DNA from: Ochrobactrum sp. Marseille-Q0166
GTDB lineage: Bacteria; Pseudomonadota; Alphaproteobacteria; Rhizobiales; Rhizobiaceae
DNA length: 64,000 nucleotides
Assembly: GCF_014397025.1 (NCBI RefSeq)
Contig: NZ_JACJUO010000001.1
Span: forward strand, 723,501 to 787,500
Direction: 5' to 3'
The translations under genes and the position numbers were made by a program. The notes below the pieces were generated by a model. That model was not told the DNA's origin. It searched no databases and saw only the letters and a program-made list of their open reading frames with translations. Of the stretch, positions 37,934 to 40,431 are shown one piece after another (the first letter of the stretch is position 1; every line of letters starts with the position of its first letter).

Positions 37934-38161
37934 ATGATGGATAAGAAAAACCTTCAAGCGAACGGAGCCGGTGTCCGGCTCAATGGGCGCGTCCAGAAGG
38001 ACATTTTAGGGCCGAATTGTGAAGTCGGTCTTAAGTTGAAAGCGCTTTACACCTCAATACAGGACGAGACCATTCCGGATCGTTTTCTCGACCTGCTGGA
38101 AAAACTTGATCAGGCTGAACAGGAGAGTACGCGTGAGCACAGAACGGGTTCTGTCGGCTGA
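37934..38161 (+). CDS. nepR: Anti-sigma factor NepR
   Basis: NepR holds EcfG inactive until PhyR titrates it. The 75-residue protein has the family pattern, with a variable N-terminus and then VGLKLKALYTSIQDETIPDRFLDLLEKLDQAE, the two helices that clasp the sigma factor. Two ATGs are adjacent at the start (37934 and 37937). It overlaps ecfG by 29 bp, so the two proteins are translationally linked. Confidence 0.94.
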   Translation: MMDKKNLQANGAGVRLNGRVQKDILGPNCEVGLKLKALYTSIQDETIPDRFLDLLEKLDQAEQESTREHRTGSVG

Positions 38162-38705
38162 GGAGATGGCGCAGTTCAAGCGCGAGCTTCTCGCGTCTTT
38201 GCCCAGCCTGCGCGCATTTGCGGTATCATTGATCGGTCAACATGATCGAGCGGATGATCTCGTCCAGGATACGATTATGAAAGCCTGGGCTAAACAAGAA
38301 TCGTTTGAGTTGGGCACGAATATCAAAGCCTGGCTTTTTACAATTCTAAGAAATGAATTTTACACGCAGATGCGTAAACGTGGTCGGGAAGTTCAAGATA
38401 CAGACGGAGTCTTTAGCGAGCAGTTGGCGGTCCATCCGTCGCAATATGGTACGCTCGATTTGCAGGACTTCAAGGTTGCACTCGATAAACTGCCCGATGA
38501 TCAGCGTGAAGCTATCATCCTGATCGGTGCTTCCGGCTTCGCCTACGAAGAGGCCGCCGAGATTTGCGGTTGTGCCGTCGGCACAATCAAGAGTCGTGTC
38601 AGTCGTGCTCGTACGCGCTTACAGGAATTATTGCAAATTGATGGCGAGGCTGATTATGGCCCTGATGCGAACTCTTCCCGCGCGACTTTGAGAAGTTTTG
38701 CCTGA
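38133..38705 (+). CDS. ecfG: General stress sigma factor EcfG (RpoE1)
   Basis: This 190-residue ECF sigma factor of the EcfG group controls the general stress regulon. Region 2 is visible as RAFAVSLIGQHDRADDLVQDTIMKAW and region 4 as LPDDQREAIILIGASGFAYEEAAEICGCAVGTIKSRVSRAR. The start is GTG 38133 with AGGAGAG at 38121-38127, inside nepR. The tail after region 4 (SSRATLRSFA) is typical. The frame extends upstream to 38106 but without a ribosome binding site. Confidence 0.95.
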   Translation: MSTERVLSAEEMAQFKRELLASLPSLRAFAVSLIGQHDRADDLVQDTIMKAWAKQESFELGTNIKAWLFTILRNEFYTQMRKRGREVQDTDGVFSEQLAVHPSQYGTLDLQDFKVALDKLPDDQREAIILIGASGFAYEEAAEICGCAVGTIKSRVSRARTRLQELLQIDGEADYGPDANSSRATLRSFA

Positions 38706-38837
38706 TCATCAGGCCTTGTAACTTGAACAAACCGTTCCATTCGTGTTTGCTTATTAATCTAGCGTCAGAAACCTAATGGATTGAATTTGATGTTTGAATC
38801 CCCGCTGACACATATGCTGCTTCAAACGTCAAATTCG

Positions 38838-38938
38838 AAAAAACCACTAGACACATATAGTTGCTAGTGGTTTTTTGATTCCAACATTTGCTTGGCGCGT
38901 GCACCGAGGGATGCAAATGTTGGAATCAGACCACTAGA
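38838..38938 (+). other. Switch-like double hairpin between ecfG and kinase gene
   Basis: AAACCACTAG (38841-38850) pairs with CTAGTGGTTT (38864-38873), followed by T-rich sequence: a terminator. The same CTAGTGG can instead pair with CCACTAG at 38931-38937, enclosing a perfect 16-bp stem (38876-38891 with 38913-38928). The two folds exclude each other. The rest of the 304-bp gap between ecfG and the kinase gene holds nothing else certain. Confidence 0.6.
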
Positions 38939-39009: not shown

Positions 39010-40431
39010 TTGCCTTCATCTTTTTCCAGTGGACTCTTAAAGCCCTCGATACGTCCGATCGCAGTGATTGTGTCGCTGAGCCTTGTATTGCTGTCCGCTT
39101 TGATCACCCTGTTCCTGTCTGCGGGCGTGAATAGCCAGATTGTTGATATTTCCAAGAATTTCGAGCTGCGAGAGCAGGTCGGTAAAGTGACGCGTATTGC
39201 ATATAATATTGAATTGAGCCGTCGGGGCTATTTGCTGACCTTAGATGACAGCTATCTTGATCTTTATCAGGACTCGATTGTCAATATCGACCGGACGCTG
39301 TCTGATCTCGCTGTTTTAACGAAAGACAATCCACAGCAGGACGGACGGCTGAAGACAATAAAAGCACTTACCGAACATGCGCATGAGGACGTGCGGCAGA
39401 CTATTGAACTTGCCAAGGCAGGAAATGTCCAAGAAGCGATAAAAAAAATGCGCAGCGATGAGGGGAAAATCCTCATGAATCAGCTTGCTGACACTGTAGC
39501 GCAATTCATACACACCGAAGAACAGGAACTCACTGCGCGTAACGCACATATAGACGCGATGCGCTATTGGATGACAGCAGCATCGGTGGTGGCGCTCATT
39601 TCCGGTGCAATTCTGGCATTCTTGCTCTTTTCCCGCTTTCAAAGGACTGTTCGTATGCTCTTTGAAGGACACTCAGTTCTTTTGTCTCAAAATGAACTGC
39701 TTGAGGAGCATGTCCGGGAGCGTACAGCGGAATTGGAACATGAACGCGCTATCGCTGAACGCGAACGCAAGCGTGTCGAAATATTGTTGCAGGATTCTAA
39801 TCATCGCATCGGGAACTCCCTTGCGACTGTTTCTTCATTGCTTGGGTTACAATTGCGACAAACACGGAGCGAAGAAGCGCGTGCGGCACTTTCCGCGGCA
39901 CGCGACCGTGTTCAGACGGTCTCGACCGCGCATCGTAGATTGCGTCTTGGCGAAGACATGGAAACGACCCGGGTTGATGAATTTTTGGAAACAGTGATTG
40001 AAGATATTCGTCATTCAATAGGTGAAGACCGTAAGATCAGTTTTGAGACGGATCTGGAGCCGCTTGATTTGAAAGCGCGGGACGTGACCACAATAGGTAT
40101 CATTCTTGGTGAGCTGGTCACAAATGCAATCAAGCACGCGTTTAAAGGACAGGCCGAAGGCATAATATCCGTCAGCTTCAAGCAAGATGCGGATATCGGC
40201 ATTCCCGTGCTGGTCGTTGAGGATAACGGAATAGGCCTACAGCATGACGATGCCGCAAGCGTCAAAGAGCAGGGCGGCTTGGGAACTCTGGTGGTTGAAC
40301 AGCTTTGTATGCAGTTTGGTGAAAAGCCCGATTATTCTGTTTGTGAAAATGGATCGGGTACAAAAGTTACCGTGCGCCTTTCGAGGCTTACAGCACATGA
40401 TGAAGACGATGGCGTCGATACATCGAAATAA
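39010..40431 (+). CDS. CHASE3-like membrane sensor histidine kinase (HisKA_2)
   Basis: This 473-residue kinase has two membrane helices (about residues 16-38 and 182-205) around a helical CHASE3-like periplasmic domain. A coiled linker follows (NELLEEHVRERTAELEHERAIAERERKR), then the HisKA_2 phosphoacceptor DSNHRIGNSLATVSSLLGLQLRQ and an ATPase domain (GELVTNAIKHAF, VVEDNGIGL, GGLGTLVVEQL). Its position beside ecfG matches RsiC of Sinorhizobium, which acts on PhyR-type regulators. The start TTG at 39010 has no clear ribosome binding site, so the N-terminus is uncertain. Confidence 0.88.
   Translation: MPSSFSSGLLKPSIRPIAVIVSLSLVLLSALITLFLSAGVNSQIVDISKNFELREQVGKVTRIAYNIELSRRGYLLTLDDSYLDLYQDSIVNIDRTLSDLAVLTKDNPQQDGRLKTIKALTEHAHEDVRQTIELAKAGNVQEAIKKMRSDEGKILMNQLADTVAQFIHTEEQELTARNAHIDAMRYWMTAASVVALISGAILAFLLFSRFQRTVRMLFEGHSVLLSQNELLEEHVRERTAELEHERAIAERERKRVEILLQDSNHRIGNSLATVSSLLGLQLRQTRSEEARAALSAARDRVQTVSTAHRRLRLGEDMETTRVDEFLETVIEDIRHSIGEDRKISFETDLEPLDLKARDVTTIGIILGELVTNAIKHAFKGQAEGIISVSFKQDADIGIPVLVVEDNGIGLQHDDAASVKEQGGLGTLVVEQLCMQFGEKPDYSVCENGSGTKVTVRLSRLTAHDEDDGVDTSK

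What the first reader, a model, noticed from the sequence alone, without database searches (positions are those of the whole stretch)
38838..38938. Mutually exclusive terminator and long-stem fold between ecfG and the sensor kinase
One segment, CTAGTGG at 38864-38870, can pair with CCACTAG on either side. Upstream pairing (38844-38850) with the following T-run makes an intrinsic terminator. Downstream pairing (38931-38937) encloses a perfect 16-bp stem and would abolish that terminator. This is the architecture of a transcription attenuator, or a palindromic mobile element that doubles as one. It would set kinase levels relative to the stress sigma factor.
Basis: partly seen in the sequence, partly recalled or inferred. 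Interest (0 to 1): 0.7.

Follow-up and report, generated by a model that had tools for sequence, protein, structure and literature searches.

The report
Mobile double palindrome before stress kinase
The two competing folds between the stress sigma-factor gene and its sensor kinase belong to one copy of a 165-base jumping DNA repeat made of two back-to-back palindromes, so they are mainly a by-product of how the repeat is built, although the copy could still act as a weak transcription stop where it landed.

Summary
The reading as a dedicated attenuator is not supported. The segment is the right 60% of a 165-bp dispersed element (window 38773-38937) with four more near-full copies in this genome, matches in 30 of 35 genomes of the genus, and in 17 of 123 sampled genera of the order, own included. 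It consists of two tandem palindromes, A and B, each ended by CTAG-type arms. The "terminator" is the junction where A's right arm can pair with B's left arm; the "long stem" is palindrome B. In 36 copies from outside the genus the ends of A and of B stay paired over 10 bp by compensatory changes (94%, 98%); the junction stays paired only over the shared 7-bp ends (92%), and beyond them at shuffle level (26%). Filled and empty sites show insertion at CTAG. Of 23 relatives none was found to have it at this position; two carry copies elsewhere in the gap. It is a non-autonomous MITE/REPIN-like element; a weak terminator side effect remains possible and untested.

The parts
38773..38937 (+). complete 165-bp dispersed mobile element (two tandem palindromes, A then B, with a 13-nt linker)
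   Evidence: ends defined by aligned genus copies whose shown flanks differ; own-genome copies; profile hit 38774-38937
38773..38850 (+). palindrome A (78 bp): arm 1 CTAATGG 38773-38779, stem 38783-38798/38821-38836, arm 2 CCACTAG 38844-38850
   Evidence: arms 1-2 and stem A covary; A-only units at G000 C2:1006705 and in G029
   Evidence: sequence; the stretch from A's right arm through the linker to arm 3 is the only part matched in Roseibium/Labrenzia plasmids (query 57-110)
38838..38876 (.).
   Evidence: full hairpin -16.0 (+) and -16.4 (-) kcal/mol; in distant copies paired only over the shared 7-bp ends
   Evidence: arms 3-4 and stem B covary; B-only units occur
38773..38776 (+). left target-site copy (CTAA here; CTAG in most copies)
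   Evidence: empty/filled comparisons at other sites
38934..38937 (+). right target-site copy CTAG
   Evidence: empty/filled comparisons at other sites
38761..38773 (+). left arm AGCGTCAGAAACC of an older kinase-leader hairpin into whose loop the element appears to have inserted
   Evidence: inference from comparison by eye with the gaps of L010, L011, L013, L028
38941..38953 (+). right arm GGTTTTCGATGCT of that older hairpin
   Evidence: inference
38106..38705 (+). ecfG-like ECF sigma factor
39010..40431 (+). CHASE3-HisKA_2 sensor histidine kinase

Best explanation
The feature is one copy of a non-autonomous mobile repeat of about 165 bp made of two tandem palindromes (A and B), each closed by CTAG-type terminal arms and joined by a 13-nt linker. 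It inserts at CTAG sites and is then flanked by CTAG on both sides (shown by empty and filled sites elsewhere), presumably mobilised in trans by a transposase not identified here (inferred). Because all four arms share the CTAGTGG/CCACTAG end, A's right arm can pair with B's left arm; this looks like an intrinsic terminator and excludes B's own closure. In this window the element landed between ecfG and the kinase, probably inside the loop of an older leader hairpin (inferred). Its junction hairpin with A6/T6 may slightly lower read-through into the kinase (not shown); there is no evidence that a switch between the folds is regulated or selected.
For: Own genome: near-full copies at 5 places including the window's own (C1:762265, 77740, 1335096, 677004, 286992), plus one A-only and one B-only unit. 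30 of 35 genomes of the genus, own included, at E <= 1e-6; in G029 86 alignments, 30 of them full-length at 93-100% identity, with head-to-tail neighbours sharing a CTAG. 29 of 297 genomes and 17 of 123 genera in the order, own included, with only two candidates scored per genome; 17 plasmid records, among them Martelella, Rhizobium, Aminobacter, Agrobacterium, Roseibium, Labrenzia, Sphingobium. Flanks shown differ between copies, apart from a few copies at the same site in related genomes. 13 sites compared with an empty relative; at 6 an empty relative reads exactly CTAG where the filled site reads CTAG at the left end. Covariation in 36 copies outside the genus, 10 pairs per helix: arms 1-2 93.9% paired with 25 double-change cells (shuffle mean 5.1, max 11), arms 3-4 98.1% with 25 (5.9, max 11), junction arms 2-3 72.6% with 5 (1.4, max 4); stem A 98.5% with 31 (4.0, max 9), stem B 97.6% with 41 (6.2, max 12).
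Against: No transposase sharing these ends was found, so mobilisation in trans is inferred. At 7 of 13 sites no empty relative reads CTAG across the site (CAAG, CGAG, CCAG, CTTG, CTAA; L090 unclear), so the target may be looser or has drifted. The window's left end reads CTAA. The window site has no close empty relative. Within the genus the four 7-bp pairings are equal (92.0-93.3%). Several of the 36 copies come from one genome or are near-identical, and the shuffles ignore relatedness.
Confidence: 0.93

Rival explanations
1. The inserted element now works as a constitutive, partly bidirectional terminator or roadblock in the kinase leader and lowers kinase expression; no switching.
For: The junction hairpin with A6/T6 folds at about -16 kcal/mol on either strand; the window's T6 is among the three longest T runs of 105 genus copies, and 93 of 105 keep A5 or more before arm 2, so the opposite strand keeps a T run; a block conserved in relatives lies upstream, so the element may sit between the kinase promoter and the kinase (by eye).
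Against: 13-nt loop and weak core (-9.8 kcal/mol); not called by the terminator scan; T runs of 5 or more in 41 of 105 genus copies but in 0 of 36 copies outside the genus; copies face gene 3' ends only slightly more often than 5' ends (101 against 81 sides).
Confidence: 0.25
2. True attenuator: the terminator and the long-stem fold are selected alternatives that couple kinase level to sigma-factor transcription.
For: The two folds are mutually exclusive and close in energy (-66.8 against -63.4 kcal/mol); the 7-bp junction pairing is still formed in most distant copies (92.1%).
Against: The same architecture occurs in copies next to unrelated sequence; none of 23 relatives was found to have it at this position; beyond the ends shared by all four arms the junction pairs at shuffle level.
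Confidence: 0.05
3. The repeat is the Ochrobactrum version of the known Brucella Bru-RS1/Bru-RS2 palindromic repeats.
For: Same genus in the current taxonomy, palindromic, dispersed; Bru-RS1 is a target of an IS that duplicates TA at YTAR (passages of PMC10800456, PMC2266754, PMC3163539).
Against: Bru-RS are reported as 103-106 bp, this element is 165; a 3.3-Mb genome of the genus (G025, species unknown) has no match. No Bru-RS sequence was available, so identity was not tested.
Confidence: 0.35
4. REPIN-type element moved by a single-strand (Y1/RAYT) transposase rather than by a DDE transposase.
For: Two palindromes in inverted arrangement with alternative folds resemble REPINs, for which a stable hairpin and a 'clover' fold are described (passages of PMC3116915); tandem copies sharing one CTAG fit either mechanism.
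Against: A Y1_Tnp domain is found in 4 of 35 genomes of the genus, not in this genome nor in G029, which has the most matches listed.
Confidence: 0.15

Closest known systems
Bru-RS1 / Bru-RS2 (Brucella palindromic repeats; Halling and Bricker 1994, seen only as cited in passages of PMC10800456, PMC2266754, PMC2267715, PMC3163539)
   Same: dispersed palindromic repeats of the same genus; Bru-RS1 is an insertion site for an IS with a YTAR target
   Different: reported length 103-106 bp against 165; no sequence could be compared
REPINs (REP doublets; PMC3116915, passages)
   Same: two palindromic units forming one replicative unit, alternative hairpin and clover folds, tandem clusters, single units seen as remnants
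   Different: each unit is 74-78 bp here, longer than a REP (REP length recalled); CTAG on both sides; no RAYT in most host genomes searched
MITEs of bacteria (review PMC10969869, passages)
   Same: short, non-coding, inverted-repeat ends, target duplication, many copies; the review calls terminator formation conceivable and names SPRITE as terminator-like
   Different: internally two complete palindromes with a linker; parental IS not found
RIME / Rhizobium intergenic mosaic elements (Osteras 1995, seen only as a reference in PMC2873474)
   Same: mosaic palindromic intergenic repeats in rhizobia (recalled)
   Different: no Sinorhizobium plasmid record is among the matches; RIME sequences were not compared directly

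Membership tests
bacterial MITE | dispersed, short, multi-copy | tested here: met
   165 bp, 5 near-full copies here, matches in 30 of 35 genus genomes
bacterial MITE | precise ends and target-site duplication | tested here: met
   CTAG on both sides of most copies; an empty relative reads exactly CTAG at 6 of 13 sites, one-base variants or unclear at the rest
bacterial MITE | shares terminal inverted repeats with an autonomous IS | tested here: inconclusive
   in the own genome the only other long matches are one A-only and one B-only unit; other genomes not searched for it
Bru-RS1/Bru-RS2 | sequence identity to the published repeats | not testable with these tools
   no sequence in the passages seen; whether any held genome is a classical Brucella is unknown; the look beside zntA-like genes of G025 found no inverted repeat with arms over 11 bp
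Bru-RS1/Bru-RS2 | length 103-106 bp | tested here: not met
   165 bp here; aligned copies are of about the same length
REPIN | two inverted palindromic units forming one element | tested here: met
   palindromes A and B; arms and stems covary
REPIN | associated RAYT (Y1) transposase in the genome | tested here: not met
   4 of 35 genus genomes, absent here
intrinsic terminator | G+C-rich stem directly followed by a T run | tested here: inconclusive
   stem CCACTAG/CTAGTGG then T6, but 13-nt loop, core -9.8 kcal/mol, not called by the scan
transcription attenuator | alternative pairings kept at the same gene in relatives | tested here: not met
   no copy found at this position in 23 relatives
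transcription attenuator | terminator pairing maintained by compensatory change | tested here: inconclusive
   7-bp core 92.1% paired with 3 double changes in 36 distant copies, but all four arms share these ends; pairs 8-10 at shuffle level
transcription attenuator | regulated read-through | not testable with these tools
   needs RNA data
RIME | sequence similarity to RIME1/2 | not tested
   RIME sequences not at hand; only an indirect look (no Sinorhizobium plasmid match)

The most novel reading that the evidence does not exclude
A previously unrecognised family of double-palindrome mobile elements runs across the Hyphomicrobiales (17 sampled genera). Each palindrome evolves its own arm sequence by compensatory change while the CTAG ends stay nearly fixed; it is moved in trans by an unidentified transposase, and at some loci, such as the leader of the general-stress kinase here, insertions are co-opted as terminators or roadblocks.
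Probability: 0.3. Interest if true: 0.55.

Novelty: new member of a known kind. Interest (0 to 1): 0.35.

Why it matters
It corrects a tempting false positive: tandem palindromes with shared ends automatically produce "mutually exclusive terminator and antiterminator" folds, so such folds should be checked for repeats before being called attenuators. The element itself is widespread in Hyphomicrobiales and has clean empty sites and strong covariation in its stems, so its mobility and its missing transposase are directly testable. If copies act as weak terminators, their insertion is a simple way to retune genes such as the general-stress kinase.

Tried and rejected
Rfam: at an E-value limit of 1, five matches, none reaching its gathering score; the best (archaeal sRNA41, E 0.0078, 29.1 bits against a cut-off of 45) is taken as chance. 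Bru-RS identity through a 3.3-Mb genome of the genus: zntA-like loci were fetched and searched for palindromes, without result. Papers holding six short arm sequences as text: 3 hits, by their titles unrelated. Literature on Ochrobactrum or Rhizobiales MITEs: nothing matching among the listed titles (20 of 65 listed, 5 of 5, 15 of 1,409, 1 of 1), so absence from print is not claimed. Phage records: no match. Gene context as a test of terminator function: of 105 copies, 45 co-directional, 25 convergent, 15 divergent, 13 unclear, 7 duplicates; no strong bias (an earlier, stricter run left 60 unclear). The four-way-junction fold of the whole element, its minimum-energy fold, was considered as the functional form; its arm pairings (2-3 and 1-4) hold only over the shared 7-bp ends. 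A single-strand (RAYT) mobiliser is disfavoured. The older leader hairpin of relatives was checked for being a repeat: in G019 the next match after its own place has E 0.155.

Corrected on checking: searches counted two copies from Martelella and Rhizobium (L157, L158) in the genus set of 107; the recount uses 105 genus copies, and the figures given here are from it. One search stopped with an error after the genus part; one search completed it. Splitting the arm pairings at 7 bp weakened my first statement that the junction pairing is lost in distant copies; the odds of the attenuator rival were raised from 0.04 to 0.05 for that reason. Of 41 hits, 36 covering nearly the whole profile were kept and 5 partial ones dropped (L256, L239, L259, L260, the second of L231).

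Full report
Observation. The genes are as named: PhyR on the minus strand, NepR, an EcfG-like ECF sigma factor and a CHASE3-HisKA_2 kinase. The two folds are mutually exclusive and similar in energy.

It is a repeat. A search of the window's own genome with the 101-bp interval gave 9 alignments, 3 of them at the window's own place. The full-length copies share a further arm to the left, so the real unit is 165 bp, 38773-38937, and includes the upstream hairpin 38783-38836. The own genome has near-full copies at 5 places, one A-only and one B-only unit. Of 35 genomes of the genus, own included, 30 have matches at E <= 1e-6; the five without are G003, G005, G011, G025 and G027. Outside the genus 0 of 25 relatives matched the 101-bp query, but a near-consensus copy as query matched 29 of 297 genomes of the order in 17 of 123 genera, own included and only two candidates scored per genome, and 17 of 72,556 plasmid records. 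No phage record matched. The organism is an environmental Brucella/Ochrobactrum by inference: its kinase is 77-78% identical to those of B. rhizosphaerae, B. pseudogrignonensis, B. pituitosa and B. grignonensis (near-identical records may be left out there), and the genome is 4.44 Mb.

Anatomy. The aligned genus copies give a consensus of two palindromes, each running from CTAG to CTAG, with a 13-nt linker. A-only units ending at the same CTAG borders occur in G029; B-only and other partial units, some with decayed ends, occur elsewhere. G029 has head-to-tail arrays in which neighbours share one CTAG.

Mobility. The copies shown have differing flanks; five pairs in the genus set share flanks, that is, lie at the same site in two genomes. 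Filled and empty sites: L015 has CTAG-element-CTAG where L025 and L026 read CTTG and L016 CTGG. Of two further sites, L169 is empty in 20 of 35 genus genomes (full-length match to the joined flanks) and reads CAAG in the three nearest; L166 reads CTAA or CTGA in two relatives, and a third alignment ends at CTAG. Of 18 sites in a joint query searched in 10 genomes, 11 queries (10 distinct sites) met an empty relative among the 50 loci examined; 6 of these sites read exactly CTAG in an empty relative, the others CAAG/CCGT, CGAG, CCAG or unclear. Seven queries found none there. In all, 13 sites, 6 with exact CTAG.

Which fold is kept? In 105 genus copies the four 7-bp arm pairings are equally well kept (92.0-93.3%); three are at shuffle expectation and arms 3-4 slightly above it, while stem B (46 double-change cells, shuffle max 25) and stem A (4, max 2) covary. 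In 36 copies from outside the genus (19 genomes and 7 plasmid records) the ends of A and B hold over 10 pairs: arms 1-2 93.9% with 25 double-change cells (shuffle max 11), arms 3-4 98.1% with 25 (max 11). The junction arms 2-3 have 72.6% with 5 (max 4), arms 1-4 76.4% with 5 (max 4). Three copies (L257, L261, second of L247) changed all four arms to the CTAGTGT type and keep the junction. Two near-identical Roseibium/Labrenzia copies have A ends CTAGTGT/ACACTAG and B ends CTAGTCA/TGACTAG: each palindrome closes while the junction is cut to CTAGT/ACTAG. The simplest reading is that each palindrome is maintained for itself and the junction pairing follows from shared ends; separate selection on the 7-bp junction is not excluded. 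The shuffles ignore relatedness and several copies are related.

The locus. Among 23 relatives with ecfG next to the kinase (L009-L031), two carry a clear copy in the gap: L009, full length, reversed, and L010, B only, reversed, starting 6 nt after the ecfG stop. L027 has a weak remnant by the ecfG stop. Other copies lie after the kinase (L015, L029, L027; remnant in L024). None was seen at the window's position. The gap is thus repeatedly colonised; whether more often than chance was not tested. In L010, L011 and L013 a hairpin with differing pairs lies between a conserved block and the kinase; in the window its arms seem to flank the element (by eye, inference; the predicted folds of L028 and L012 do not show it clearly).

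Terminator potential. The junction hairpin has T6 on one strand and A6 on the other, -16 kcal/mol, core -9.8. T runs of 5 or more follow arm 3 in 41 of 105 genus copies (6 or more in 3, the window's among them) and in 0 of 36 others; A5 or more precedes arm 2 in 93 of 105 and 2 of 36. Copies show no strong bias to gene 3' ends (101 against 81 sides). A weak terminator effect at this copy is possible; a regulated switch has no support.

Comparison with the known. Papers were seen only as passages: PMC10800456, PMC2267715, PMC2266754, PMC3163539, PMC10969869, PMC3116915, PMC2873474. REPINs are the nearest by architecture, including alternative hairpin and clover folds, but a Y1 transposase was found in only 4 of 35 genus genomes. 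The element is best filed as a new member of the MITE/REPIN-like kind. That CTAG/YTAR targets fit IS5-family transposases is recalled, not tested.

Noticed in passing
L010 2233-2330, L011 2337-2420, L013 2295-2375 (gap before the kinase): A hairpin (for example AACCAGCGCCAGAG..CTCTGGCGCTGGTT in L010) with differing but pairing arms lies between a conserved block and the kinase start in some close relatives; in G019 the segment has no second strong match. It may be the real structured leader of this kinase.
   Followed up: partly
window 38721-38755; same place in relatives of L009-L031 shown: A block resembling ACTTGAAGATTTC..CTAATATTTGCTTG is seen upstream of the kinase in relatives and more weakly in the window; possibly its promoter.
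   Followed up: no
window 38700-38714: GCCTGATCATCAGGC, a perfect 7-bp inverted repeat with a 1-nt centre, overlaps the ecfG stop codon.
   Followed up: no
L160-L163 (G029): Head-to-tail arrays of two or three copies with a period of about 163 bp, sharing the CTAG between neighbours.
   Followed up: partly
L015 3870-4040, L029 3870-4045: In two relatives the same element is inserted near the 3' end of the kinase gene itself, where L025 reads on for some codons.
   Followed up: partly
query positions 2002-2080 (left flank of the L095 copy): This flank is itself another dispersed repeat, matching many places in the genomes searched.
   Followed up: no
L231 3101-3161: A hybrid palindrome joins an A-type left arm to a B-type right arm, suggesting recombination between A and B.
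   Followed up: no
L247 (second, reversed element next to the first): A divergent second element (CTAGTGTGGTGG.. type) lies back to back with a copy of the main type.
   Followed up: no
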